A DNA stretch of 64,000 nt from Rugalucina vietnamica. Lineage: Eukaryota > Mollusca > Bivalvia > Lucinida > Lucinidae. Where the stretch lies: the NCBI GenBank assembly GCA_964017185.1, contig OZ024879.1:41237883-41301882 (forward strand), in the 5' to 3' direction. Below the pieces are notes generated by a model. It was not told the DNA's origin. It did not search any database and saw only the letters and a program-made list of their open reading frames with translations. A program made the translations under genes and the position numbers. Shown here piece by piece: positions 1 to 59,503 of this stretch (position 1 is its first letter; each line of letters begins with the position of its first letter).

Positions 1-753
1 TTGCGTTTGCCCCGTCAAATTATTGAATGTTCCGTCAGGACAAAGTTTGCAATCTGGCTGTCCTTTAGTATTCTGATATTGTCCATTTGGGCAGTCAATG
101 CATGTAGTCTGTTCCTCGGAATTCTGATACTGTCCTGTAGGGCATGGCTCACAGCTGCTTTGCTCTGTTAAATTCTGATACGTTCCTGGTTGACATTTTT
201 TACATTTCTTTTGTTCGATGGAATCTTGATAGGTTCCAGGCTGACAAGGATCACAGACTATTGATTCTGAAAAGGTCTCGTATGTCCCAACAGGACACGG
301 AATACAGTTAGGTTGACCTGTAGAGTTCTGGTATGAACCCGGTTGACAAGGTTTGCATGACGTTGCACCGATTGAGTCCTGATAATGTCCACTGGGACAA
401 GGCGTACAGCTAGACTGGCCTGTCTGATCATTATACGTGCCATCAGGACAACTGACACAACTGGCTGCACCTGTCGAATTCTGATACTGTCTCGTTGGAC
501 AAGGTGTGCATTTGTCTTGTCCCTTCAAGGATTGAAAATGCCCTATAGGACATTCCTTACACTTGTCGGTTTGTCCAGTCACGTTTTCATATTTTCCAGC
601 CGGACACTGGAGGCATGAATCTTGACCAGCTGATGGTTGATAGGTACCAGTTTCACACAGAGTACAGGCTTCCTGACCCTCGGTGCCTGTATATGACCCT
701 GGCTGGCAAGGCTCACACTTGACTGAGTTTTGCAAAGGTTGGAATAACCCTTA
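1..753 (-). CDS. Continuation of the Cys-rich repeat array past an in-frame TAA; runs off the window
   Basis: The reading frame of the main exon stays fully open for 250 codons after the TAA at 751–753. It continues the same 17-residue CxxC units (for example CEPCQPGSYTGTEGQEA and CIDCPNGQYQNTKGQPD) to base 1. The stop falls where other units read P-K-G-Y-F-Q: here the codons are CCT TAA GGG TTA TTC CAA. Two substitutions, or a pair of compensating one-base shifts, would explain it. With no second stop in 250 codons, the stop is recent, a sequencing error, or a true terminator with the rest only lately released from selection. I cannot tell which. Confidence 0.65.
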
Positions 754-3005
754 AGGACAAAGAGCACATTTCTCTTGGCCAGTAGAATTCGTGTAAGAAC
801 CAGAGGCACAGGAAATACAGGAAGTTTTTCCTGTCGAATTCTGAAATTTTCCAGCTCCGCAAGGAATGCAGTTTGTCGAATTGGTTGCATTCTGATAGTA
901 TCCGACCGCACAAAAAGTGCACTGTGGTTGACCAGTCATGTTGGCATAAGAACCTGCAGGACATGGTTTGCATTGTTCCTGTCCCAACTGATCGTTATAT
1001 TGTCCAAGGCCACATGGTAGGCAGTTGGTAGAATTTTCGTCGGGTTGGTAGTGTCCTTTAGAGCATTGAATACATACCTTACTACCAGTTGTATTTGTAT
1101 AAGAACCCGTATGGCATATTTTGCATTGTATCTGTCCAGGCTGATCCTGATATTGTCCTGGTGGACACTGCAGACAGCTGGTAGAGTTAACCTCGGGTTG
1201 GAAATATCCTTTAGAACATGGAATACATGTGTTACTCCCAGAAACATTAGAAAAAGTGCCTGCTGAACAAGTTTTACATTGTTCTTTTCCCGTGTTGTCC
1301 TGATATTGTCCCGGCACACATGGTATGCATTCTGTTGACGTATATGCAGGCTGGTGGTAGCCGTCGGGACACGGGTTGCATTGTCCCATTCCAGGCAAAT
1401 TTTGATACTGTCCCGGAACACACGATAAGCAACTGGTTGAGCCTTCATCTGGTTGATGGTGTCCTGGCGAACATTCAAAACACTTGTCATTACCTCTTGT
1501 GTTTGTATAAGTACCTGCGAGACACGACTTGCAGGATTCCTGCCCTTTTATATCCTGATACTCGCCTTGCTCACATGGTTCGCATTGTGTTGACGCTTTA
1601 TTTTCTTGGTAGAACCCAACATCACAAGAGGTGCACTTTGAATTGCCGTATGTATTTGAGTACGTTCCACTTAAGCAATCTAAACACCTGTCCTGTCCTC
1701 TGCTATCCTGATACGTTGTGGGTGGACAGTCTTCACAAGATGTTGTTCCTGTTTGATACTGATATGTTCCGGCATAACAAAGGGTGCATTTCACTGTATG
1801 TGGAGATTGTGAGAATGTACCTATGTCACACTTCTTGCATTCAGTACTGCCATCTTCATCCTGGTACTCCCCTTCAAGGCATTCTTTACACTCTGTTGAA
1901 GCTTCTTGATCTTGATAGGTTCCCACAGTACAACTTGTACATCCCACAGAAGCCCAAATATTTGAATAACTTCCAGGTTCACATGGTTCGCACTTGGTCT
2001 TACCAAAATCAGATTGATAATATCCCCAATCACAAAATTCACACTCGTATTGTCCATTCTCAGATGAAGCGCTTCCAGGATAGCAATCGGTACACGTTGA
2101 ACTGCCTTCATTCTCTGCGTATGATCCAGCTAGGCATATTTTGCAGTTTAATTGACCTTTTTGATCTTGGTACCATCCTTTTGCACAATTAAGACAACTG
2201 CCCTGTCCACTGTTAGGTTGATATTTTCCAGGTTCGCAAGGTGTGCACTGCATGCTGCCTGTTGCTGCGTAAGTTCCAGCTTCACATATCTTGCAGCTTG
2301 TTTTACCTATCTCATCCTGGTACCATCCATTTGCGCAATCTAGACATCTGTCTTGCCCACTGTTGGGTTGATATGTTCCATATTGACAGAGTGTACACTC
2401 CGGCTCGCCTTCTGTTGGTGCAAAAGTTCCAACTTCACACATCTTGCAGCTTGATTTACCTTCGTCATCTTGGTACCATCCTTTTGCACAATTTAGACAT
2501 CTGTCTTGCCCACTGTTGGGTTGATATGTTCCATATTGACAGGGTGAACACACCGAAGTGCTTTCACTTGCTGCAAAAGTTCCAGCTTCACACATCTTGC
2601 AGCTTGTTTTACCTCCCTCATCCTGATACCATCCTTTTGCACAATCTAGACATATGTCTTGCCCAATGTTTGGTTGATATTTTCCTGGTGAACAGGGCGT
2701 ACACATCGTATTGCCTTCATTTGATGCATAAGTTCCAGCTCCACATTTTATACAGTTTACTTGACCGTCTTTATCTTGATACGTTCCTGCTTCACATTTT
2801 GAACAATTGCCCTTTGCACTACCATACCATCCTGCTTTACATTTTTCGCAATATCTAAACAATAAAACACCTTCAAGATCAACCACACCAGTACCAGTTA
2901 TATGGGTAATATAGTAAGGGTCTATTGTTTCTTCTTCATCCAAAACAAGTTCCTCTCCCCAGTCACAACTAAACGGTATATTTTCGAAACCTTCGTAACA
3001 ACGGT
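751..3005 (-). CDS. Secreted Cys-rich repeat protein, main exon (to in-frame TAA)
   Basis: This exon encodes a chain of about 41 units of 17 residues with the pattern C-x2-C-x3-G-x-[YF]-Q-x3-G-x3, the ephrin-receptor-like/GCC2-GCC3 type of disulphide-rich repeat found in extracellular proteins. A short non-repeat lead (CYEGFENIPF, then an acidic stretch) precedes the first unit. The exon opens at 3005 after a good 3' splice site (TATATTTTCAG). One base from the exon ending at 10438 completes its first codon as GAC, so the phases match. With that exon the product up to the TAA at 751–753 is 779 residues. There is no ATG at 2943; the codon there is TTG inside the exon. Some units repeat as triplets: near-identical 153-bp blocks lie about 2200–2680, a sign of recent unequal duplication. 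Secretion is inferred from the signal peptide. The specific function is unknown. Confidence 0.8.
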
Positions 3006-16123: not shown

Positions 16124-16904
16124 AGTGTTTACTTTGAATATGAAGAAAATCTTACCCATGATCGACTGCTCTCTCTCAATTACGCGTTTTGTCACATAAA
16201 GCGCTTTATAAAAACTAGTGAACACGTCTATACTGACTAGACAGTTAACCGCAATTAATTAAATTTATCCATTGTTGACACTCCCCGTCAAAAAGCGGTA
16301 AAATCTAGCAAGCAGTCTCGATCGTGGTGACTGCTTATCATAGCGCATCTAGGCTTAGATCGTAGATACCCTGACGAGGGGTACAGAAACTATAGGAACT
16401 CTATATGGCTGACTTTTTGTCCATCACATTGGTCCCATGGGTCTGTGTCTGGTAGAATAGAATAGAATAGAATAGAATAGAATATTCTTTATTTCCACAA
16501 GGGGCCCGATCATAGGGCATACAACACAGCATTTATAAACATATATGTACAGTAATGCATGCAATCAAGACAACACGCCTACCATATATTAGGAAAAGAT
16601 AGGTTAAACCAATTAAGGTAGTTTTTATGGATTATTCTTTTCTATTTCATCTTATTTCTAGAAATAGAGCCTTACAGACATGAACTTCTACTGAGTAGAC
16701 AAAAAAGAAAAAAAAAAAAAAAAAAAAATCTTGAATACCCTATCATTATAGCATTCAGTAGGCGTGTCTCCTTAATAAATATTCACATGAAAATATATCA
16801 AATTTACACATATATACACAAATAAAAATAATTACAACAATGGCTTGCTTATATTTTCATCTTAAAAATCTTTATGAAAGTGACTAGAACACGTGAGTAC
16901 TGGA

Positions 16905-19900
16905 TTATTGCTTCCTGATTTCCAAACAGGTAAAAATAAAATTCGAGAGTTTTTGTATGACATCCTCATTTTCATTTGTCAGAAGCCATATAAATTTATT
17001 TTCATCTGTCAAGATATTAAAATTTTTGTATGTACTCTTCAAATACAAATATAATTTATTACGTTCCTCTTGATATTTCTGACATTGTAGCAAAAAGTGC
17101 ATTTCACTTTCAACTTCATTGGTGTGACAATTTTTACAAATTCTTTCAGTTGATTTAACATTTTTGTACCTGCCTCTTTCAATAGCTAATTGGTGGGCAC
17201 TTATTCTAAACTCTGTGTAGCATTTTCTGACCTCTCTATTTTGAATGATGCGGAGATATATTTCTTTCTTGAATTTTGGTTTAAAACAAAAGTAAGTTCG
17301 TAGTTTTCCTTGTTTATCAACTGCATTTTCTTTAATCTGTTTTTCCCAGTAGCCCATTGAACGTTTAATAAGTAATGATTTGATTTCATGCACACTCATA
17401 TTATCATCAATATTAAGTTGATCAAAAATAAATGACAATCCTGTATACCAACTTTGTTTACCATTATTAAATAGTTCTTTACTTGTATTCAGACTCTGCG
17501 CTAATAGGCTATCACTTTCCATATTTTGAATGCGCTTGAAATATTTTATAACTCCACCGATTATATCTATAAAATAAGGTGTCCTACCTAATTCACCGTA
17601 AACTGCTAAATTAGTAGATTTCTTATGTACACCTAACACATACTTATAATATTTAGTTGTTAATTTTTCACATTCATAATTGGAATATGCCTTTTCTAAC
17701 TTGAATTCTGTTTCATTCTTTAAAGCTGTTGATGATGGCGAACATAAACCCCAAATTTCACTTCCATATAGCAAAATAGGTTTAACTGTATGGTCAAATA
17801 TATGTAAGCTAGTATCTATATTCGGGGATAAATCTCCAAAAATACTTTTGAGTTTGAAAAATGCCTTAAGAGCTCGCTTGTACAGATCCGTTCTTGCATG
17901 TGAAAATGATCCTGAAGCAGCAAAAACCACTCCCAAATACTTATAAGTTTTCACATTTTCTATCAACTCTCCATCAAAATAAAATTTATAGGGTAATAAT
18001 TTTCCAGTCTTATTGAATACAATTGTTTTTGTTTTATTAATATTTATATCTAAACACCATCTCTTACAATAGGCTTCAAGTTTTTCAAGACAGTTTTGTA
18101 AACCTATTTCACTTTTAGATAAGAGTATAACATCATCAGCATACATAAGGCAGTTTAAGTTACAATCTCCCAAACTAACAGCATCACAATCTTCATCAAA
18201 AATTCTTGGTAAGTCATTTATGAATATCTTGAATAAATTAGGGCTAAGCGTATCTCCTTGTCTAACACCCAGTTCTGACTCGAATTCTTCAGTAAGACTA
18301 TTGCCTATTCTAATCCGCAACTTATTTCCTAAATACATATTCTTAACAATATTATAAAACAATCCAGATATGCCTAAGTTCTGCAGCTTCAAAAATAATG
18401 CCTGATGTAAAACTGAATCAAATGCTTTTCTGAAATCTATAAAGCATGTGAACAACCGTGCTTTACTTTGATATGTATATTTCTCAATCAATGTGCGCAA
18501 AACAAACATATGATCTGATGTGCGCGCCTGTTTTTGAAATCCAATTTGCGTTTTACTAATTACCCTATTCTCATTCAAAAAATTATCAAGTCTAGCATTA
18601 AGTATGGAATTAAAAAGTTTTCCCAGGCAGCTCATAATGGTGATACCCCTATAATTTGATGGGTCCGACTTTAAACCTGACTTATAAATAGGGTTAATAT
18701 AACCGCTTTTCCATGCTTGGGGATAAACACCAACCTGTAAAATTGCATTAACTATTTTCAAGATACAAGGCAACAGGATAGATTTACCACATTTTAGCAT
18801 TTCATTACATATACAATCCAACCCTGATGATTTACCATTTTTTAAAGCACTTAAACTTTTGGTAATTTCAGATTCAGTGATAGAAAAATCGAGTTTATTA
18901 AAGGATTGACTGCGTTCTGCTTGCTTCAATAACTCCTCTACTTCCTTTGCTCTTTCTTGAAATTTAGATGGAAGAGTATTAAGATTAGAAAAATGTTCTG
19001 ACATTTCTTCAGATGAAGTCAATGTTTCTGTCGTCGATTTTTTATCATCTTTTAGTTCATTTAAGAGTGACCAGTATGCCTTAGGATCTTTCTCAAATAG
19101 GTTATTTAATTGATCAATAAGGTTAGCTTTATATTGTTTTCGCTTAAATTTACACAACTTACTATATAATTTCCTGTACCTATAAAAACTCCCTCTGACT
19201 AAAGGATCATTAGGGTACTTTGCAAATTGCTTACCTTTGAAATCTAATGTTTTTCTCATTTTCAAGAGGTCTAAATCAAACCATTTTTTATTCCTCTTAA
19301 ATTTACTCTTCCTAATTTTCTTTTTCCTGAGACACTTATTACCAGCACTGTACAATATTTCAGAGAATTTATCTACAATATCATTAACTTCAACTGTATT
19401 GCTTATTTGCATATCTAAAACATCATGCAATCTATCCATAATTTCTCCACTCTGTAATTCATTATAAAAAAGTTGAGGTGAAAAATCATCCCACTTAAAT
19501 TGCTCTGGAAAATCTTTTAAATTCTGTTTATGTTCATCTTGAAAAAAGTTAGCAAATATTCTGACAGAAATTTTAGAATGATCAGACAGTCTTAAGATAG
19601 GTTCATCAACATGGAAGTATAATACATTTGACATTTGTTCTTCAGATACTAATCCATAATCTATAACGCTATTACCATTATATTGGTAAGATGTGTATTT
19701 ACCATGCAAATCACCAAACGTCCTACCGTTTAGAATTCTTAGTCTACTTGAAATGCATATTTCTAATAACTCTTTTCCTCTTGAACAAACCTTAGTATCC
19801 TTACTATTTCTGTGAACAATATTAGAGTCAATAATATAATCTTCATGCAGGGGTAAATAATTGTCATCATCATTCATAATAAAATCATCTTCAGTACCTG

Positions 19901-20393
19901 TCCTAGCATTAAAATCTCCCATTAACGTCACTGACCCTAATTTCTTGTATTTTGCAATGTCTGTTTCTACCATTTCTAAAAAATCAATGTTTTGGTCAAT
20001 ATAATAAGAGGAATATTGTGGTGGTATATACACAAAACATACATATAGGTCCTTATCAAAACCAAAAAAGTTTTTATCCATTAAAAGCCATTGATATTCA
20101 GAACATGTAGATGACAAATATTTTACACCTTTTCTTAAATTTCTTTTTATTAATATGCCTAAGCCACCATAATGCTGTTTACCCTTTGAAGATTTTCTTT
20201 CTATGTAATGTAGAATATGCTCACTAAAATTGCAAGTACTGATGTCACTTTTTACTTCAGCTAAACAAATAATGTCACATTTTTCAAGACTTCTATTAAA
20301 TAAAATGTCTTTTGATTTATCAGCCTGTTTGGAAATTAACTTATTTATATTCCAGTAACCAATGTTTATAGATGATTGATGTCTATTCGTCAT
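16905..20393 (-). CDS. LINE ORF2: endonuclease and reverse transcriptase
   Basis: 1162 residues, intact. The N-terminal ~240 residues are an APE-type endonuclease (GYWNINKL, CLAEVKSD, LMGDFNART, DYGLVSEE, LSDHSKISV). Reverse transcriptase follows at about residues 480–760, with NYRGITIMSCLGK, FIDFRKAFD, GVRQGDTLSP and the catalytic YADDVILL. The C-terminus has a zinc-binding motif CKNCHTNEVESEMHFLLQC. It starts at the ATG that overlaps the ORF1 stop (TAATG, sharing base 20393), which suggests translation by termination and restart. There is no RNase H here; that activity sits in ORF1. The encoded enzyme would nick DNA and prime reverse transcription of the element's own RNA. Confidence 0.88.
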   Translation of the reverse strand: MTNRHQSSINIGYWNINKLISKQADKSKDILFNRSLEKCDIICLAEVKSDISTCNFSEHILHYIERKSSKGKQHYGGLGILIKRNLRKGVKYLSSTCSEYQWLLMDKNFFGFDKDLYVCFVYIPPQYSSYYIDQNIDFLEMVETDIAKYKKLGSVTLMGDFNARTGTEDDFIMNDDDNYLPLHEDYIIDSNIVHRNSKDTKVCSRGKELLEICISSRLRILNGRTFGDLHGKYTSYQYNGNSVIDYGLVSEEQMSNVLYFHVDEPILRLSDHSKISVRIFANFFQDEHKQNLKDFPEQFKWDDFSPQLFYNELQSGEIMDRLHDVLDMQISNTVEVNDIVDKFSEILYSAGNKCLRKKKIRKSKFKRNKKWFDLDLLKMRKTLDFKGKQFAKYPNDPLVRGSFYRYRKLYSKLCKFKRKQYKANLIDQLNNLFEKDPKAYWSLLNELKDDKKSTTETLTSSEEMSEHFSNLNTLPSKFQERAKEVEELLKQAERSQSFNKLDFSITESEITKSLSALKNGKSSGLDCICNEMLKCGKSILLPCILKIVNAILQVGVYPQAWKSGYINPIYKSGLKSDPSNYRGITIMSCLGKLFNSILNARLDNFLNENRVISKTQIGFQKQARTSDHMFVLRTLIEKYTYQSKARLFTCFIDFRKAFDSVLHQALFLKLQNLGISGLFYNIVKNMYLGNKLRIRIGNSLTEEFESELGVRQGDTLSPNLFKIFINDLPRIFDEDCDAVSLGDCNLNCLMYADDVILLSKSEIGLQNCLEKLEAYCKRWCLDININKTKTIVFNKTGKLLPYKFYFDGELIENVKTYKYLGVVFAASGSFSHARTDLYKRALKAFFKLKSIFGDLSPNIDTSLHIFDHTVKPILLYGSEIWGLCSPSSTALKNETEFKLEKAYSNYECEKLTTKYYKYVLGVHKKSTNLAVYGELGRTPYFIDIIGGVIKYFKRIQNMESDSLLAQSLNTSKELFNNGKQSWYTGLSFIFDQLNIDDNMSVHEIKSLLIKRSMGYWEKQIKENAVDKQGKLRTYFCFKPKFKKEIYLRIIQNREVRKCYTEFRISAHQLAIERGRYKNVKSTERICKNCHTNEVESEMHFLLQCQKYQEERNKLYLYLKSTYKNFNILTDENKFIWLLTNENEDVIQKLSNFIFTCLEIRKQ

Positions 20394-20395
20394 TA
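20391..20395 (-). promoter_or_regulatory. TAATG stop/start overlap between LINE ORF1 and ORF2
   Basis: The ORF1 stop TAA and the ORF2 ATG share one A. This arrangement is known to support reinitiation of ORF2 in some non-LTR elements (for example SART1). Here the mechanism is inference. Confidence 0.7.
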
Positions 20396-22771
20396 ATTAT
20401 ATCGTCCATGATAATAACCATATCTCGGTCTATCCCGCCGTGAACCGCCATTTCGTCTACCATTGAACCCATTGTATGGCCTGTATCTTCCGTTCCCATT
20501 CGATTGTCCTAGAGCTTTATGGATCGAAGACTTCAGGTTGGCACTGAGTTTCTGAGTGCCAAGGCGCGACAGATGTTTACCGTCAGCGTTCAGAATTCCT
20601 TTAGACGGTTGCCCCCGATAAAACAGATTCCCGTTATCACACAGAGATACGCTTTCCATATCCGCCAACTTCTCCTGTAGAAGGACATTTAATTTCATGA
20701 CTTTACGGTTAATGCCCTCCTCTCTGCGTGGTAGTCCCATCGATACGACTATTTTGGTATTTCTAGCTTTTTGTTTAATGTCTGTACATATGTTGTGTAC
20801 CTTTGCAGCGCAATCCTCTGGTGTCTCTTTTTCCATGTCGTTTTCAAACAGATGCAAAACGACCGCATCAGGATTCTCTTTCATCTGGTCAATGTACTCC
20901 TGTCCTTCTTTGAGGGTGTATTTCGTGGTTTTCTGCACCTCTACTTCTGTGCTGGACAATCGGTTAGCATCGATATATTTGATATTTGAAGTTCCAATCA
21001 ACAGCACTGACTTCTTGTCAGGTATGGCTTCAATGTCGATAACAGGTTCTTCACTCGGTGTAGATGATTTTTCTCTAACGTTACTTCCTTCTTTCTGACT
21101 CCTCACTTTCGCCCGCGATTCAGTAGCTGGTAGCTCTTGCACCTGTTCCTGGACTTTCATAGATCCCTGCTGGACAAGAGAGTCATCTTTTCTAGATGCG
21201 TGCATCTTCCATGCCAGAACTTCATCTTGTAGCTGTAGCAAATCAGAATTCTGTTTCTTGACTTTTTCTTCCAATTCTAATATAACTTCACATTTGATTT
21301 TCAGTCTTTTCTCCATATTTTCTACATCTTGTTGTATAATCCCTGCCTGGGTTTTGGATGACTCATATTTCTGGTTGAGAACTGATAAGGCACTTTGCTG
21401 TTTGGCTGCGACCATTTCTTTCTCGAGGTTTACTTCAAATATCTGCTGTTTTAGTTTCTTATTTTCTCTGTCTTGGTTTTCAATTTTCAATGAAAGTGTT
21501 TGGCAATTATCACATTTCTTGTCAGGTTTTGATGAAGTCTCTTGATTCTGTGTTTTCAAACTGTCCCTTTCTTCTGTCAATTTTCTTATCTGGTTCTGTA
21601 AGTTTGTAGTATTATTGTGAACTTTAGCGAAGTTGTCGATGGCATTAATAAAGCTACTTTCAAGTCTTTGAACGGTTACGTCTTGGAAATCAGTTAGGCA
21701 TTTGTCGATGGAAGTGAAGGATTCCGGTGTTTGTGTCTCTCTATCGGTTGTAGCTGACTTTCCCTTTTTTGTCTTTCCGTCACTATCTGATTCATGCTGG
21801 ATGCATTTGTCACTCATCTGTTTCCCATCTGATGGTTTATCTGTTTGGATACAGCTGTCCACATGTTCCACTCCTGTTTGTGTTTCTGATTCAAGATATT
21901 TCCCAGGTTGGACAACAGGGTATTCAAAATGATCTTTCACTCCTCTACTCTGTTCTTGGCATTTTTCATCTGATCCTGACATAGCCATCATTTCATCAAA
22001 TTTTCTATTGAATTCTGTATCCATATTTGAACAAGTTTCACATGTATACTTTCTTTGTGATTTCTCATACATGTATAACTGGTAGGCTGGCAGTTTAGAG
22101 CATGTATAGTGAAACCAAAGTTTACAGTCTCTGCACTGAATACCATCATCTGCGACTGGACTCTTACAGGTTCCGCAGTTATATTTCTTCTCTGATATGA
22201 CATCACTCTTCCGCGTCTCCTTTCCTTGCTGAACATCGCTCCTTCTTGACTCTCTTGTAGATTTTGTCTCGCTACTCCTTTCCTCCTCTATGGATTTTAC
22301 CAACTCCTGCCAATGGCAACTTTCTGAAGAAATTCCAGACTTCGCGAGCTCATCCGCTTTAAGATTACCAGCAACATCACCATGGCCCTCTACCCAGCAC
22401 CACTTCAACTGTAATTGACTTGAGAGCTTGTCTAATGTGATCCACAGATCTTTGTTCAGGACATCTGACTTCTGCTTAGTTTTCCAGCCATTTGCTTTCC
22501 ACTGAAGTATCCATTTGGTTATCCCTTCTTTAACATATTTGCTATCAGTACTAATCTGGACTTGCTTCATTTGACTGTGCTTTGCTTGGACTAATGCGAT
22601 TATTACGGCGGTCAATTCTGCTCGATTATTTGTTTGCTTCTCTCCAACAAGGTACTCACTTACGTTGAGAGGGTTTTCTTCGCCCCAGAACACGCCGCAT
22701 CCCCCCTGGGGGTCCTCCTGTCCATTATTTCTGCATGCCCCATCAACGAAGACACTGACGAAGTCATCCAT
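20393..22771 (-). CDS. LINE ORF1: RNase H1, PHD finger, coiled coil, esterase
   Basis: 792 residues, intact. Residues 5–150 are an RNase H1 domain with all four metal-binding acids in place (FVDGAC, NNRAELTA, STDSKYV, and D in LKADELAK) and the HGD loop. The stretch GITKWILQWKANGWKT followed by LNKDLW is close to cellular eukaryotic RNASEH1. A PHD-type zinc finger follows at about 195–250 (CGTCKSPVADDGIQCRDC, FHYTC, CETC). Then comes a coiled coil (about 380–540), and an SGNH-type esterase at about 595–765 (LLIGTSN, LHLFENDM, GKHLSRLGT). The tail is Gly/Arg-rich (GRRNGGSRRDRPRYG), probably RNA binding. PHD plus esterase is known from CR1 ORF1; a front-end RNase H1 is not usual as far as I know. 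Confidence 0.85.
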   Translation of the reverse strand: MDDFVSVFVDGACRNNGQEDPQGGCGVFWGEENPLNVSEYLVGEKQTNNRAELTAVIIALVQAKHSQMKQVQISTDSKYVKEGITKWILQWKANGWKTKQKSDVLNKDLWITLDKLSSQLQLKWCWVEGHGDVAGNLKADELAKSGISSESCHWQELVKSIEEERSSETKSTRESRRSDVQQGKETRKSDVISEKKYNCGTCKSPVADDGIQCRDCKLWFHYTCSKLPAYQLYMYEKSQRKYTCETCSNMDTEFNRKFDEMMAMSGSDEKCQEQSRGVKDHFEYPVVQPGKYLESETQTGVEHVDSCIQTDKPSDGKQMSDKCIQHESDSDGKTKKGKSATTDRETQTPESFTSIDKCLTDFQDVTVQRLESSFINAIDNFAKVHNNTTNLQNQIRKLTEERDSLKTQNQETSSKPDKKCDNCQTLSLKIENQDRENKKLKQQIFEVNLEKEMVAAKQQSALSVLNQKYESSKTQAGIIQQDVENMEKRLKIKCEVILELEEKVKKQNSDLLQLQDEVLAWKMHASRKDDSLVQQGSMKVQEQVQELPATESRAKVRSQKEGSNVREKSSTPSEEPVIDIEAIPDKKSVLLIGTSNIKYIDANRLSSTEVEVQKTTKYTLKEGQEYIDQMKENPDAVVLHLFENDMEKETPEDCAAKVHNICTDIKQKARNTKIVVSMGLPRREEGINRKVMKLNVLLQEKLADMESVSLCDNGNLFYRGQPSKGILNADGKHLSRLGTQKLSANLKSSIHKALGQSNGNGRYRPYNGFNGRRNGGSRRDRPRYGYYHGRYN

Positions 22772-23439
22772 TACAGTTGCGGTGGTCGGATATTCACTGA
22801 TTTTTAAGAAACGGCTAAGAGTTCGAAATTCAAACGTCGTCGGCTATAAGGGACACTTCTTCCTCACCTGACTGTATATTATTTTCAATAATCACGACCT
22901 TGTAGACCTTGAATTTGGTTAAAATCTTCTAATTATTCTTGACAATTTCAAAATTCATTGTTTACACACGAACGTCACTTCCGGTTATAACTGGTAGTGT
23001 GGCTGCAGGTCAAAATTCAGAACTCTGACACAAATTGACTGCACTGCAAAATGGTTTTCTACACATCGACATATTGATTGTAATCGTGTTCCCTTTAGTA
23101 TTGGCTTTGATTCCATAACGTCAGAAATTTTGGGCAACGCCTTGAGTGACAGATACACACACTGGTCAAGCGTTCATAACAAGAAACGCCATTCATGTAT
23201 AGGAAACGAAACTGAAACGTATGAGAATCGAAATTAATGACAAACCAGAGAATCAACGACACTGAAATCCAGAGCAAAAGGAATCTCTTATAACAAACGG
23301 CTGCTGACCTTTTCATTGGTTTCTTTTTAAAGAAGCCAACTTGTTATGTCTTGAGTCAAAAAGTAAAAAGAAAGTCCATGACTACCAGTTTGGTTTCGGC
23401 GGTATTTGTCAACGATTGCAGTCAGGTAAGCTAAAATTC

Positions 23440-29099: not shown

Positions 29100-31499
29100 T
29101 TATATTTTATAAAACAGATTTACTTGTCTAAGAAATGATAAAATCTTTCCAACGGGTACATCTTTGAACAATTCTTTCAAGTTATTAGCTTGAAAACAAG
29201 AAATTCGCTCTGCTGCAAAGTCAGTGCATTCTAAAAGAACGTGTTTAACTGTGAACGGTGTATCACAGCCAATGCATTTAGGTTCATCTTCTCGCTTTAA
29301 TAAGTGGGAATGTGTTATTCTTGTATGACCAATTCGGAGACGAACAAGAACGATTTCTTCTCGTCTCGAAAGTTTATGAATTGCTTTTGGTCGTTTAACG
29401 ATCGGTTCGACTTCCCTCAATTTATCAAACTTCGCTCCGTTCCAGATTGTTTGCCATTTGTCAGAGATGTACTCGTTAATAAAAGGTTTAAAATTGACAT
29501 AAGGAATTTTAAAAACGGTTTATTCTAGATTTAACGATTCTTTAGCGTTCTTATCAACTTTCTCATTTCCATATATACCTTTATGACTGGGAACCCAGCA
29601 ATAGATAATTGTTTTCAATTCCGAGATGGTATGATGTTTTATTAATAGTTTTTGTATTTGAGGGTTTTTGGATGATGTATGGTTTAAGGCCTGTAGAACT
29701 GACATAGAGTCAGAAAAAATAATAAATTTGTCCTTTAAGTTACTTTCATTTATGAAGTCCAAAGCTAAGTCTATAGCTTTAGCTTCCGCTGTGAAAATTG
29801 AAGAGCCATCAGGTAAACGTAATGTTTTGCAATTGCCGTTTGTAAAAGTAGCACAACCAACTTTGTTTTCTTCTTTTGAACCATCAGTATAAATACATTG
29901 ATAGTCAATAAATTGAGATTGTAGTTGATGAAAACTTTCTTTTAGAAGGTGTGGATTTGAGTCGGATTTTTTCCCTGTATGTAGAGTCAAATTAACTTCT
30001 GGTTTTCTAATGCACCATGATGGTATTTCTGAAACAAAATGTTCTTCTATTTTATCTTTTTGGATGTTTGCTGATTCTAAAAGTGGTGCAACCCGTAAAC
30101 CAAAGGACCGGATAGCCTTTGGTTTACTTTCGTAAAGCTGTACGACTTCTTCAGAAATATATGGCGGAAAAGACACCTTATGAACTGGATTTGATGGATT
30201 AGCAGCAATTCTAATGGCGTACTGTAGGGCAAGTTTCTCTCGTCGTAAATATAGAGATGGCTCTTCAGCCTCGACATAGAGGCTTTGTACAGGTGATGTT
30301 CGAAAAGCACCCAGAGCTAATCTTAGGCCTTGATGATGCACTGTGTCAAGAGAACTGATATATGATGGTCTTGCCGATCCATATACGATGGATCCATAAT
30401 CTAATTTTGAACGAATGAGGGAACGGTATAGCTGGAGAAGGACAGTGCGATCAGCACCCCAGTCTGTGTGTGATAATACTTTCAGTAAGTTCAACGCTTT
30501 CAGGCATTTGGCTTTTAAGTACTTGATATGTGGAATGAAAGAAAGTTTACGATCAAAAAGAACTCCAAGAAATTTAAAATCTTCAACTACTGGAATAAGA
30601 GAACCATATAAATAAAGTTCGGGATCATTGTGTACTTTCCGTAGTTGACAAAAATGTACGCATTGAGTTTTCGACTTGGAAAATTTGAAACCATTATGTG
30701 AGGCCCAGTTTTCTATTCTGTTGATGCACTGCTGTAAGTGCCTTTCGATAGTTCTCATACTTTTTGACCTGTAACACATACAGAAATCATCTACATATAA
30801 TGATCCATCTGTTTTAGGATCCAAGCAATCCATTATGCTATTTATCTTAATATTGAACAATGTTGTAGACAAGATGCTCCCTTGTGGGACACCCTGTGCT
30901 TGGTCGAACTTTTCGGATAAAGTCGATCCAACACGAACCTGGATCCAACGATCCGCAAGGAAATTTTCGATAAATGTAGCTAATCTGCCTCGTATTCCGA
31001 GATCATGTAGATCTCGCATAATACCATGTCTCCAGGTGGTATCATAAGCTTTTTCCAAGTCGAAAAACACAGCAACAACATGCTCTTTTGCAACAAAGGC
31101 ATCACGAATAAAGGTTTCCAGTCTTACTAGATTGTCGTTGGTACTTCGTTCAGAACGGAAGCCCGACTGAACAGGAGATATTAGGTTATTACTTTCTAAG
31201 TACCAAACAAGTCTTACATTTATCATTCTCTCTAAAGTTTTGCAAAGACAACTTGTAAGTGCTATCGGTCTATAGCTGTTAGGTTCTGCATGGTCTTTTC
31301 CAGGTTTAGGAATTGGTATTATAGTGGCTAGTTCCCAACTTTCGGGAAACTTTCCAGTTTCCCACATATCATTAAATATATCTAAGAGAGCAAGAAGTGA
31401 TTTTGGTGAAAGATGTTTTAACATTTGATAGTGAACTTCGTCGGGACCTGTTGCTGTATCATGGGCTTTACTGATGGCGTCTTTTAGTTCATCCAAATT
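29100..31499 (-). pseudogene. LINE ORF2, reverse transcriptase–RNase H–zinc motif part
   Basis: Reverse transcriptase: PNSYRPIALTSCLCK, FFDLEKAYD, GVPQGSILS and the catalytic LYVDDF. RNase H follows with IYTDGSK, AEAKAIDLAL, FSDSMSV and VPSHKGIYGNEKVD. A TAA at 29520–29522 ends the long frame after ESLNLE. The same frame stays open downstream (TVFKIPYVNFKPF …) to a C-terminal zinc motif CIGCDTPFTVKHVLLEC and stops near 29100, so the TAA is a single in-frame nonsense change. It joins the endonuclease part across a one-base shift near 31490, where a T run in CCTTTAATTTGG looks one base short. Confidence 0.8.
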
Positions 31500-32809
31500 A
31501 AAGGAGTATTGTATTCTTCATTATTTGAGGACTTAAAGTTTAACTTAGTCTTTTCTTGTTCTTTCTTATATTTTTGAAATTCCTCCGAATAATGACTGGT
31601 TGAGGAATTTGAACAAAATTGTGATGCCAAAGTATCTGCTATATCTTGTTTTGTGGAAGCTGTTTCGTTCGCATTGTTGAAATTGTAATTAAGATGGTGA
31701 TAAGAAGCAGATTTAGATTTACCGGATACTTTCCTAACCATGTCCCAAACTTTTTTAGTGGGTGTTTTATAATTCAAATTCGATACGTATGTTCTCCATG
31801 ATTTGCGTTTTGCAGACTTCATAGTCCGACGGGCTTTTGCTCTAGAATTCCTATAACTATTTAAATTTTCATGCGTTGGGAACTTGCAGAACTTCGACAA
31901 AGTGTCTTTCCGTTGTTTGATAGCTTCTTTACAATCGTCATTATACCATGGGTTACTTTTCTTTGGGTTCGTCGAGGTTTTGGGGATACATTTCTCAGAT
32001 ATATTTATTAAAGAAGAGGTGAAGTCAGTTATAGGATCAGAAGAATCAGAGAGAAAAGTATCAGTAAGGGACTCATTACATAAAGTATGAAATAAATCCC
32101 AATCTGCCTTATTCAATTTCCATTTGGGATTATGGGCTTCATCATGAGTCTGAACGCTGTCAATTAAAATTGGAAAGTGGTCAGATCCACGTTGATCTTC
32201 ACAAACAGACCAGTCATAGTCAAGAAAGAGAGAGGGGTGACAGAGTGAAAGATCAAGGGATGAGAATGTGCCTTTACCAGAATCTAGATAAGTGTTAGAT
32301 TTATCATTTATCAAACAAATGTCGTTTTTCGTGATGAAATCCTCGATTAATTCTCCTCTGGGATCATTGTCATTACAACCCCAAAGCACATTGTGACCAT
32401 TGAAGTCACCTACCAACATATAGGGTGAAGGAAGCTGTTGAAGTAAAGAAGTAAGTTGTTCAGATTTTAAAAGATAAGAGGGAGGGATATAGACTGAGCA
32501 GAAAGTTATCTCTTTCTCGAGTGTAACAGAAACAGCTACCGCTTGTAGATCCGTTTTAAGTTTAATTTGACGCTGTGGTAATGTTGAATGGACAAGTAAA
32601 GAGCTTCCACCAGATGCTCTTAGACAATCCAAGTGTATGTGATTGTAAATATTAAAGCCTTTCAAAGTAAACGTGTCATTAGGTTTGAGGAAAGTTTCTT
32701 GAAGACAGAAAACAGAAGGTCTAAGTAGTGACAAAAGAAGTAGTAGTTCTTCAAAACGTGGTTTTACACCTCGACAGTTCCATTGTATTATTTTATATTT
32801 GCTACCCAT
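31484..32809 (-). pseudogene. LINE ORF2, endonuclease part
   Basis: 441 codons from the ATG at 32809. APE-type endonuclease motifs are IIQWNCRGVK, CLQETFL, VYIPPSY, LVGDFNGHNVLWG, SSLDLSL and GSDHFPIL. The linker after it is basic. The frame runs out at 31484 because of the one-base shift described for the next part. The ATG lies 62 bases after the ORF1 stop, so there is no ORF overlap in this family copy. Confidence 0.8.
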
Positions 32810-32871
32810 TAAATAATTTAGAGAGGAGATTTAAATGCGTGACCTTTTGTTTAAATGTAGACTGGAAACTT

Positions 32872-34095
32872 TTACTTTGGAGCTGTGATTGGTGACCGAG
32901 GACGATGGCCACGGGAACCAGGGCGCGAGGCAACCTCGTCCATCTCCATGGCATCGTCATTAGCCAGAGCTCCAAATTTGTTATACTGTTGGACGGGATC
33001 ATCTGATCCCTTCTGCACCCTACTGGATGCAGAATGTGGTTTTGCGTTTGTACTCGGTTGGTTTGGTTTTGAACTAACTTTGGCTTGTTCTGACAGAGAT
33101 TTGCTTGATGTTACGTTCTGATTTTGAGAATTATTGTTTCTGTTTGGTTTCCTCGCAATGAGAACTTTTGAACTCTCTGTAATCTTACAGTCTTCGACAC
33201 TGTATTGTGTAGCAGCTGTTTTGGTTTCTGGTTTGGCAGCAAGTGATTTGACTATATGTGAGAAACTAAATTCAGGCTTCTGTTCAAGTTGTTTTCGAGC
33301 TTCAAGATATGTCAAGTTCTTTGTTATCTTCAATCGCATGATTTCTTTTTACTTCTTCCATGTTTCGCATTCATTTGACCGTGATAGATGCGCTCCGCCA
33401 CAGTTGACACATTTTGTGGGGTTTTTGCAGTGATTTGTATGATGGTCATGGTTTCCCATACCACATCTTTCACAGACTGACCCGGGGTCAACTGGGCATT
33501 TGTCCTCATGGTGTCCAAATTTCTGACAGTTAAAGCATCTCAAAGGATTTGGTATGTACAGATCGACAGGAATAATTTGATAAAAGATTTTCAGAGATTT
33601 AGGTGGTACAACTGAGTCAAATGTTAAAAGAAGTGTATTCGTGTTGATTGTGTCTTGTCCTTTTTTAACTGTGAAGCGTTTTACTGCTGTAACACCTTGA
33701 TTTTCCAAGTACTCGAGTATGTTCTTTTCTGATTCTCCTTTGAGATTTCTGTCTCTGATTATGCCTTTGGAAGAGTTTAGAGTTTTGTGTGGTTTAACCT
33801 CTACTGGTAGATTGAAGAACTTTTTTGATTTTAAAAGAATATCTGTTTGCATTTTCCTTGTTGTTTCTACAAACAATGTTCCGTTTTTTAATTTCTTCAC
33901 AGATTTTGGTGTGCCTATAATAGATTCAATTTGTTTCTCAATAACGAAAGGTGACAGTGATGTAACTTGTGTTTCTTTGTTTGTTGACTCAATAATAATA
34001 AACTTTGGAAAATTTTCTTGTGCTCTAAACAGTGTCGAAGCGTCTATATCGTCGTCGGAGTCCGGTCGTTGTCGTTTGTGTGCTATTGAATCCAT
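32872..34095 (-). pseudogene. LINE ORF1 with zinc knuckles, one in-frame stop
   Basis: The first 248 codons (34095–33352) hold a nucleic-acid chaperone-like region and three zinc knuckles (CFNCQKFGHHEDKC, CERCGMGNHDHHTNHC, CVNCGGAHLSRSNEC). A TAA at 33349–33351 follows ETWKK. The same frame then continues for 155 residues (KEIMRLKITKNLTYLEARKQ … SPITAPK), rich in Ser, Lys and Gln. A single base change explains the break. Such ORF1 proteins bind the element RNA. Confidence 0.75.
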
Positions 34096-56031: not shown

Positions 56032-56635
56032 GTACAAGTAGGCAAAGATCAGGAAAAGGCGCAATCAGAAAAAGAATCCCACTCCAAAAACCAAGGTGGG
56101 AAAAAACCAAACTAACAATCAGGTGCTTATACCATGAAAACATTTCGTAAGCCGAATGAGCAGCTATTTTCCCAATAGGTGGCCACTCAGTTACCTTAAC
56201 TTAACTAAAAATATGCAAACATACATAAGGCGCCAACAACACAAAAATATTTTAAACACCAAGACATAAAACAAAAAGAACCACCACAGAAGTATCGACT
56301 TGGAACGATCAGTAACACAAAGTTACTGGCGGGTTTAAATCGATTTTACACGGCCGTAACCTCACCCTCAGCTTCTGCAGTGGTTCATAACATTTAGTTA
56401 GTTCTTCGGTCCTCGTGGTGAATCTCTAACTAGTAAATGAATCATCAAGAACAAACAAATAAATCATGATAGACATCCTGATGAATCAAAAACCAGGACT
56501 CACAGATTCAGTAAGCTGCCCGACGATGGAGATCCCTGGGCGCCAAATAACTTACTAACTCCGGAGCTAAAGAAAAACAACAGTTAGACCCCGGTGGGCC
56601 AAGCAACAGACAAGAAGCTCCGGCCCCAACCAACT
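56032..56635 (-). mobile_element. Retroposon-like repeat C, inserted in the OTU domain
   Basis: A full-length copy (about 604 bp) from GTACAAGTAGGC to CCAACCAACTA, same ends as the copy at 36474–37072. Coding sequence of the OTU domain lies directly on both sides (…ESYAEI and SHVYALS…), so it splits the catalytic domain unless it is spliced out. The last ~17 codons of the open frame (VGWGRSFLSVAWPTGV) are element sequence. Confidence 0.7.
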
Positions 56636-57076
56636 ATTTCTGCATACGATTCATCAATCACAGCATCTCTAACAAGCTTATCATAGTCACTAGTAACGAT
56701 TCTTGTGTCATTAAGAAAGTCATTGTACTTTTTCTTAGTATCATAACTTGATCTGTTGAGAATCAATTCTAGAGAAGTCTGTAACCTTAAAAGAATGTGA
56801 CAGTCCTGCTCACCAGTCATTGCTAAAGAAACTGATCTATATAAACAATTGCCGTCACCAATTACTTGTAACGGATTATAGTCCGTGTTCATAACTGGAT
56901 GAAACGTGTTTAATATCTGTACTGACGCTCTGTCAATTTGGGATTCGGAGAACACATGAACCGTACGATCTGCATCACATGGTACCTTCACGCCATAGGT
57001 CTGTAGTAACTTGTTCTCTGACTTTGCCTGGTTGAGAAGGTCACTCTTTCTAGTAGATTTCAGTGCTTCTCGCAAC
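56636..57076 (-). CDS. OTU-type cysteine protease, N-terminal half (exon 2)
   Basis: It begins after the acceptor TTTTTAATTATTTTTAAG at 57077. Its first base completes an AGG codon with exon 1 (59220), so the phases match. The catalytic motif is VIGDGNCLYRSVSLAMTG, with the OTU Asp and Cys in place, followed by the helix LLRLQTSLELILNR and the DAVIDESYAEI region. OTU enzymes usually cut ubiquitin chains; the substrate here is unknown. The N-terminal TTG sometimes taken as a start is inside the spliced frame. Confidence 0.72.
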
Positions 57077-58760: not shown

Positions 58761-59088
58761 ATCAAAGATGGCTGCGTAAACTAATTCTATGACAAAAGCC
58801 GATGGCTGTGACGTATTTAGCATTAAATCAAACAACAGTTCATTATTCAGGAGTAACATCGATTTATACATGACATCGGAGTATTGCCGAGAAAAAAGAT
58901 AAATTAATTTATTACATGGAATTATTAAGATAACGTTCCTACATGACAAATATGAATTCATACATGAATAAAGGTTTAATTATTATAGGCACAGTTCCGA
59001 CATGATCAAAGCTGAAGACTGGGACGTAAAGCACAAACAACTCATCATCAGTAAAACCGGTATGCACATGGCATGTGTAATGTAGGTG

Positions 59089-59090
59089 AA

Positions 59091-59121
<31 letters not shown>

Positions 59122-59206
59122 ATGTGGAATTACTATTAAGACAGCGTCCTGACATGACGAAAGTTGTTGACTGAGATGTAAAACAAAAAATAAATAAATA
59201 AATAAA
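59089..59206. repeat. (AAAT)n tracts
   Basis: Two runs of AAAT units (59089–59123 and 59189–59206) in intron 1 of the PHD–OTU gene, close to the donor site. Confidence 0.85.
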
Positions 59207-59219
59207 TTTAACAACATAC

Positions 59220-59503
59220 CTGTCAAGAGCAGCTCTTGCTTTGTACTCGGAGCCATCAAAAGTACACCGTTGGCACAGAAATTGTAGATAATCCACTGAC
59301 CACTGTTTTAGATTTGACTTAGATAAATTTGTACAAATATCATGAACCCATTTTTCACAATTGCAACATTGAATGGTATTATATATTTCGTCTAAACATG
59401 GTTTAGAGCACATTGTGCATATGTACTCGTCGATCGTGAATGATGTCCGAGTGAAGATGCGAAGAGGCTGAAAACGTGGGGTTATATATGCTCGGAACTT
59501 CAT
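59220..59503 (-). CDS. PHD finger exon (exon 1 of the PHD–OTU gene)
   Basis: ATG at 59503, 94 codons and two bases, ending CTTGACAG/GTATGT. Residues 27–82 form a PHD finger with C4HC3 spacing (YICTMC, IQCCNC, WVHDIC, FLCQRC). PHD fingers read histone tails or bind protein partners in the nucleus. The phase (2) matches the acceptor at 57077/57076, so the spliced protein runs …KARAALD-R-LREALKSTRK… into the OTU protease. No clear TATA box lies upstream; an earlier exon is possible. Confidence 0.72.

What the first reader, a model, noticed from the sequence alone, without database searches (positions are those of the whole stretch)
20393..22771. RNase H1 domain fused to the front of a CR1-type LINE ORF1
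Seen: ORF1 starts with a complete RNase H1-like domain (FVDGAC, NNRAELTA, STDSKYV, LKADELAK) whose GITKWILQWKANGWKT segment looks like cellular eukaryotic RNASEH1, followed by PHD finger, coiled coil and esterase. Known: LINE RNase H domains normally sit after the reverse transcriptase in ORF2, and CR1 ORF1 is known for PHD plus esterase. Inference: the element captured a host RNASEH1 and put it in the protein that is made in larger amounts, possibly to remove RNA from the new cDNA in trans. The ORF2 here lacks RNase H, which fits.
Basis: partly seen in the sequence, partly recalled or inferred. Interest (0 to 1): 0.85.

Follow-up and report, generated by a model that had tools for sequence, protein, structure and literature searches.

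The report
LINE ORF1 carrying captured cellular RNASEH1
A group of jumping genes in this animal genome carries, inside its RNA-packaging protein, a copy of the cell's own RNASEH1 enzyme (some relatives also keep its hybrid-binding domain), held intact by strong selection, which suggests that these elements bring their own tool for stripping RNA off freshly copied DNA.

Summary
ORF1 (792 aa) reads RNase H1 – PHD – coiled coil – SGNH esterase; ORF2 (endonuclease + RT) has no RNase H hit. It is no chance fusion: 9 of 20 DNA matches in the same genome run from the element's 5' end through the domain (7 at 99-100%, 2 at 76% identity), and none of the 20 joins the 5'UTR to the rest without it. Three diverged families keep it as their best conserved ORF1 domain (56-63% identity; coiled coil 23-27%). 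Catalytic D-E-D-H-D is invariant in 14 of 14 families aligned; pN/pS is 0.06 in the pair tested by region. The domain groups with human and own-genome RNASEH1 (98/98 to 100/99), away from ORF2-type RNase H. New: 34 of 63 RNASEH1-like sites have RNASEH1's hybrid-binding domain (HBD) just upstream, and five further ORF1s keep HBD without RNase H. So an ancestor acquired RNASEH1's HBD–RNH architecture and lineages trimmed it; one capture or several is unresolved (AU p 0.058). The RT clade ("CR1-type") is not established. Most likely role, inferred: tethered RNA removal during target-primed reverse transcription. Nine searches of the paper library showed no report of RNase H in a LINE ORF1.

The parts
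16458..22983 (-). whole LINE copy: 5' end at about 22983, 3' end in a (TTCTA)n repeat at about 16458
   Evidence: identity to other copies drops at both ends: 5' start shared by 5 of the 6 copies compared (one begins about 13 bases later), (TTCTA)n tail in 4 of 4 copies compared; no clear target-site duplication
22772..22983 (-). 5' untranslated leader, 212 bases
20393..22771 (-). ORF1, 792 aa: RNase H1 - PHD - coiled coil - SGNH esterase - Arg/Gly/Tyr-rich tail
22331..22759 (-). RNase H1 domain, aa 5-147; catalytic D10, E52, D76, H130, D140
   Evidence: PF00075 E 2e-37; human RNase H1 best in PDB; residues invariant in 14 of 14 ORF1s; positions
22031..22177 (-). PHD finger, aa 199-247 (C4HC3)
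   Evidence: PF00628 E 5e-5, just under the cut-off; ligands
21092..21661 (-). coiled-coil region, about aa 371-560
   Evidence: read from the sequence; no dedicated predictor run (limits)
20516..21004 (-). SGNH esterase domain, about aa 590-752 (GTSN, END, DGKH)
   Evidence: profile of 11 ORF1s against PDB 4c1b E 5.5e-14
20396..20515 (-). Arg/Gly/Tyr-rich basic tail, aa 753-792
16905..20393 (-). ORF2, 1162 aa: endonuclease + reverse transcriptase, no RNase H hit; starts in TAATG overlap with the ORF1 stop

Best explanation
A lineage of non-LTR retrotransposons in this genome acquired the coding sequence of cellular RNASEH1 (hybrid-binding domain, linker, RNase H) at the front of ORF1, ahead of a coiled coil and an SGNH esterase. 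Descendants kept both domains, or lost the HBD (the window's family and its PHD-bearing kin), or lost the RNase H and kept the HBD. Shown here: presence, architecture, kinship to RNASEH1, intact catalytic residues, strong purifying selection, recurrence in many families and copies. Inferred: ORF1p multimers on the element's RNP bring RNase H (and HBD) to the RNA:DNA hybrid made by target-primed reverse transcription, so that the RNA is removed by a tethered enzyme and second-strand synthesis can go ahead with less help from host RNase H. The overlap TAATG suggests that ORF2 is made by termination-reinitiation, hence in lower amount than ORF1p (recalled for other LINEs, not tested here).
For: Architecture. 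HBD: PF01693 hits up to 62.6 bits in ORF1s, profile matches yeast and human RNase H1 HBD structures 1qhk and 3bsu; 34 of 63 RNASEH1-like RNase H sites above 75 bits have an HBD within 1.5 kb upstream on the same strand. Origin: ORF1 RNase H + human + own-genome RNASEH1 form a clade at 98/98 (47 rows), 100/99 (28 rows), and window-type alone with RNASEH1 100/98 (21 rows); ORF2-type RNase H fall apart from it (100/99). The own-genome RNASEH1 is a split gene with introns inside HBD and RNase H. Function kept: D, E, D, H, D invariant in 14 of 14; pN/pS 0.057 in RNase H against 0.30 in coiled coil for one pair of families; dN/dS 0.04-0.14 in the 4 of 11 pairs where dS was not saturated; best conserved ORF1 domain, 62/63/56% against three families. 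Recent activity: the window and three other copies have both ORFs open at 99-100%. Mechanism: host RNase H2 is needed by LINEs without RNase H, and overexpressed RNase H1 partly rescues L1 in RNase H2-null cells (PMC6068448, passages).
Against: No biochemical or expression data. Five relatives with HBD but without RNase H (L053, L054, L064-L066) have long open ORF1s, so the enzyme is not needed in every lineage. Only two eukaryotic RNASEH1 sequences were at hand for the tree. By plain identity the window domain is as close to bacterial RNase HI (Halomonas 46%, E. coli 43%) as to RNASEH1 (own genome 44%, human 42%). In the rooted trees ORF1 domains do not form one clade: RNASEH1 falls among them; one clade is not rejected (p 0.058), but joining window-type with HBD type A is (p 0.021). 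Order among the ORF1 types is unresolved without prokaryotes.
Confidence: 0.66

Rival explanations
1. The domain acts mainly before or beside reverse transcription: removing R-loops at the target, or cutting RNA paired to element DNA or to host nucleic acid, for example as a counter-defence.
For: RNASEH1 of cells acts on R-loops (PMC6068448 passage); catalytic residues kept; N-terminal placement away from the RT.
Against: No evidence for any specific target; the simplest substrate near an ORF1p-RNP is the TPRT hybrid.
Confidence: 0.15
2. RNase H and HBD serve as nucleic-acid binding modules that package RNA or hybrids, since esterase-type ORF1ps lack RRM domains; catalysis is incidental.
For: [quoted passage not shown] five relatives keep only the HBD.
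Against: All five catalytic residues invariant in 14 of 14 ORF1s; an active RNase H would endanger what it binds.
Confidence: 0.12
3. Two or more separate captures: the window-type RNase H (no HBD) was acquired independently of the HBD-RNase H types, from RNASEH1 or even from a bacterial RNase HI.
For: Window-type lacks HBD and splits off first in the prokaryote-rooted trees; joining it with type A rejected at p 0.021; identity to Halomonas RNase HI 46%.
Against: Window-type joins RNASEH1 rather than 13 prokaryote and viral sequences at 100/98; one clade of ORF1 domains not rejected, p 0.058; an HBD-PHD ORF1 family (L053) lies among the PHD-bearing RNase H families in the RT tree, though weakly (80/93 and 83/92), which fits loss from an HBD-RNase H ancestor.
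Confidence: 0.3
4. The domain is a relocated LINE ORF2 RNase H.
For: Some LINEs carry RNase H in ORF2, also in this window.
Against: 13 ORF2-type domains are separate at 100/99 and share only 24-28% identity with it (2 compared).
Confidence: 0.01
5. Chance fusion in one copy, or an assembly artefact.
For: None found.
Against: 9 DNA matches at 76-100% hold the same fusion, and diverged families hold the same order.
Confidence: 0.01

Closest known systems
Esterase-type (type IV) ORF1 of CR1/L2/RTEX LINEs, such as ZfL2-1
   Same: coiled coil followed by SGNH esterase; profile matches the ZfL2-1 esterase 4c1b; PHD fingers are known in CR1/L2 ORF1s (PMC4120745 passages)
   Different: RNase H1 (and HBD in relatives) in front; PMC3905857 found no structural RNA-binding domain in esterase ORF1ps, and PMC4120745 has no mention of RNase H (passages and term counts)
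LINEs with RNase H in ORF2 (I, R1, Tad type; plant Ta11 and oomycete L1/Utopia with archaea-like RNase H)
   Same: an element-encoded RNase H, in some cases acquired from cellular-type genes (PMC5348765 passages)
   Different: there the domain sits in ORF2 and belongs to another branch; here it is in ORF1, of RNASEH1 kind, with HBD in relatives
Eukaryotic RNASEH1
   Same: RNase H domain with basic protrusion, catalytic residues, and in relatives HBD-linker-RNase H order
   Different: intronless inside a retrotransposon ORF, fused to PHD/coiled coil/esterase, many copies; the window's family has no HBD
Fungal Helitron with captured PF01693 and RNase H-fold genes (PMC4289320, passages)
   Same: a mobile element carrying an HBD-type (PF01693) domain
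   Different: DNA transposon, separate captured genes, described there as viral sequences

Membership tests
CR1 clade of LINEs | RT groups with CR1 RTs in a tree | not testable with these tools
   no named CR1/L2/RTE RT at hand; RT tree had only L1 and R2 from PDB and a LINE of this window. Motifs GVRQGD and NYRGI look RTE-like rather than CR1-like (recalled, not tested)
CR1 clade of LINEs | ORF1 with PHD and/or esterase | tested here: met
   PHD just under Pfam cut-off, esterase by profile; not exclusive to CR1
Esterase-type (type IV) ORF1 | SGNH domain behind a coiled coil | tested here: met
   SGNH; coiled coil read by eye only
LINEs with ORF2 RNase H | RNase H behind RT in ORF2 | tested here: not met
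   no RNase H hit in ORF2 at E<=0.1
LINEs with ORF2 RNase H | RNase H of LINE type by tree | tested here: not met
Eukaryotic RNASEH1 (domain origin) | RNase H domain groups with RNASEH1 against prokaryote RNase HI | tested here: met
   only two RNASEH1s in the trees
Eukaryotic RNASEH1 (domain origin) | N-terminal hybrid-binding domain | tested here: not met
   absent from the window's ORF1; present in related ORF1s
Eukaryotic RNASEH1 (domain origin) | hydrolysis of RNA in RNA:DNA hybrids | not testable with these tools
   catalytic residues intact only

The most novel reading that the evidence does not exclude
A deep group of animal LINEs took over the cell's RNASEH1, HBD and enzyme together, as the leading module of ORF1p in a single old event, and has since evolved by trimming it; ORF1p thereby became a hybrid-binding and hybrid-cutting scaffold that supplies RNase H to target-primed reverse transcription in trans and frees the element from host RNase H2.
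Probability: 0.42. Interest if true: 0.88.

Novelty: new variant of a known kind. Interest (0 to 1): 0.76.

Why it matters
How LINEs without RNase H clear the RNA template is an old question; host RNase H2 is one answer (PMC6068448 passages), and the benefit of acquired RNase H in LINEs has been called enigmatic (PMC5348765 passage). Natural ORF1ps with RNASEH1 fused on, with HBD only, or with both, form a ready series for testing whether the enzyme must be tethered to the RNP. They also show ORF1 taking up a host enzyme of nucleic-acid metabolism, and would give the esterase-type ORF1p the structured nucleic-acid binding that it was said to lack.

Tried and rejected
Rejected: ORF2-type RNase H relocated; single-copy accident; bacterial origin of the window domain, though plain identity alone does not decide it. 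Led nowhere: P0002 and HBD alignment against viral contigs gave no relative; the 80 RNase H loci from viral contigs were not examined for LINE context. No other eukaryote genome was available, so spread to other species is untested. HBD tree of 15 short rows is too weak to decide (72/84). RNase H tree without prokaryotes does not resolve the order of ORF1 types. No target-site duplication was found. Structure prediction was not run.

Rows dropped: from the RNase H set, L033 (a stop), and L029, L014, L037 (identical to others); L012 (a stop) never entered; bacterial L075 and L077 (partial) not used; of 80 viral loci 8 were used and 4; one search also left out all 13 ORF2-type rows, BACT_L074 and BACT_L076. 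Of 63 RNASEH1-like sites, 15 different ORF1 sequences entered the trees. Sites under 75 bits were left out of the count; some are RNASEH1-like fragments next to an HBD (for example C1:58431022, C3:72195218).
Full report
WHAT IS THERE. The window holds a LINE copy on the minus strand, about 16458-22983: a 212-base leader, ORF1 (20393-22771, 792 aa), ORF2 (16905-20393, 1162 aa) and a 3' end in (TTCTA)n. ORF1 stop and ORF2 start overlap as TAATG. ORF1 gives PF00075 at aa 5-147 (E 2e-37) and PHD at 199-247 (23.6 bits, cut-off 24); its C-terminal domain belongs to a set of 11 whose profile matches the ZfL2-1 ORF1 esterase 4c1b (E 5.5e-14). ORF2 has endonuclease and RT hits and no RNase H hit at E<=0.1.

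NOT AN ACCIDENT. The own genome (1.09 Gb, 47 contigs) is held. A DNA search with leader + ORF1 gave 20 matches from 19 candidates, all scored: 7 at 99-100% over essentially the full length, 2 at 76% that run from base 1 through the domain, 11 short ones to diverged families. In the first 2244 bases of ORF1 the window differs from five other copies at 8, 10, 8, 13 and 24 sites. Four places, the window included, have a whole ORF2 at 99-100% without a stop next to an ORF1 without a stop. The protein search gave 87 matches (57 of 1737 candidates scored, so a lower bound), down to 38% identity over nearly the whole ORF1.

DEEP CONSERVATION. Among 14 ORF1 RNase H domains the catalytic D10, E52, D76, H130 and D140 never vary, nor do W87, W91, N94, W96 and K97 of the basic protrusion. 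Against three diverged families the RNase H domain is 62, 63 and 56% identical; PHD 47, 61, 37; SGNH 42, 42, 35; coiled coil 27, 26, 23. Between two families on C1 and C12, pN/pS is 0.057 in RNase H, 0.053 in PHD, 0.30 in the middle and coiled coil, with synonymous sites near saturation. Of 11 RNase H pairs, 4 had a computable dN/dS (0.04, 0.04, 0.07, 0.14); of 15 HBD pairs, 5 (0.07-0.24).

THE HYBRID-BINDING DOMAIN. Reading the diverged ORF1s showed a domain that Pfam calls the RNase H1 N-terminal domain (PF01693) ahead of the RNase H: L010 50.7 bits, L036 49.7, L022 62.6 (cut-off 21). A profile of 9 such stretches finds only yeast and human RNase H1 HBDs in the PDB at E<=0.01. PF01693 gave 51 matches in the genome, 65 of 65 candidates scored. 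PF00075 gave 150 scored of 412 candidates; 63 exceed 75 bits, and 34 of these have an HBD within 1.5 kb upstream on the same strand, mostly 180-390 bases away, 29 not. Layouts seen in full: RNH-PHD-coil-SGNH (window, C15, C4, C1:45374880), HBD-RNH-coil-SGNH without PHD (C1:31624774, C10:33237126, C1:99301275), and HBD with no RNase H hit in five ORF1s, four of them with a PHD hit (L053, L054, L064, L066; L065 without). Five of the six RNase H-bearing relatives read downstream have a long open ORF2 with RT; at C15 only an endonuclease start is open. One kindred ORF1 (L060) has neither domain.

ORIGIN. The own genome has an RNASEH1 gene on C5 with introns inside HBD and RNase H. In trees the ORF1 domains, human and own-genome RNASEH1 form a group: 98/98 with 47 rows, 100/99 with 28, and 100/98 for window-type alone with RNASEH1 against 13 prokaryote and viral rows. 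The 13 ORF2-type domains stand apart (100/99). Against this reading: plain identity does not separate RNASEH1 (44 and 42%) from bacterial RNase HI (46 and 43%), only two RNASEH1s were available, and RNASEH1 falls among the ORF1 domains in the rooted trees; one ORF1 clade is held at p 0.058, window-type with type A rejected at 0.021. Without prokaryotes the order is open. The RT tree places the type A elements outside, then C1:99301275, then the PHD-bearing families with the HBD-only L053 family among them, at moderate support. I take uptake of HBD-RNH in a common ancestor with later losses as likeliest; several captures remain possible.

HOW IT PROBABLY WORKS. Shown: an intact, selected RNase H in the ORF1 protein. 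Inferred: ORF1p multimers on the RNP hold RNase H at the TPRT hybrid. LINEs without RNase H depend on host RNase H2, and overexpressed RNase H1 rescues L1 only partly, which the authors ascribe to diffusion (PMC6068448, passages). Fusion to ORF1p would solve that. The HBD would add grip on the hybrid. That some relatives live without RNase H shows that it is an advantage in some lineages, not a rule.

WHAT IS KNOWN. Nine library searches listed no paper that I could see to describe RNase H in a LINE ORF1. Passages were seen of PMC4120745 (ORF1 types; 'RNase H' 0 times), PMC10294476 (bivalve LINEs; 0 times), PMC11203168, PMC5408684, PMC3905857, PMC5348765, PMC6338049 and PMC4289320. Repbase and subscription papers could not be searched, so an unpublished or unindexed record may exist.

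Noticed in passing
window 29520-34095 minus: A second LINE of another kind: ORF with RT and a C-terminal RNase H of the usual ORF2 type (41.7 bits), a separate endonuclease frame and a zinc-knuckle-like ORF1 (the last read by eye).
   Followed up: partly
L060 (C11:48063000-48066800 minus): Kindred ORF1 with coiled coil and esterase but another N-terminal region without Pfam match in place of HBD/RNase H/PHD.
   Followed up: partly
L053, L054, L064, L065, L066: ORF1s that keep RNASEH1's hybrid-binding domain without any RNase H hit.
   Followed up: yes
L062:8668-8754: A second RNASEH1-like first RNase H exon upstream of the one used, suggesting a duplicated or partly duplicated host gene.
   Followed up: no
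window about 22970-22983 minus: The element begins CCGGAAGTGACGT, which resembles ETS and CRE binding sites (recalled), perhaps an internal promoter.
   Followed up: no
window 59048-59503 minus: A PHD-like fragment (20.4 bits, under Pfam cut-off), possibly a remnant of another LINE ORF1.
   Followed up: partly
window 751-2943 minus: 730-aa ORF with 25 ephrin-receptor-like cysteine-rich repeats (PF07699).
   Followed up: partly
window 56584-57075 minus: Short ORF with a weak OTU-protease-like match (22.2 bits, under the cut-off of 23.3).
   Followed up: partly
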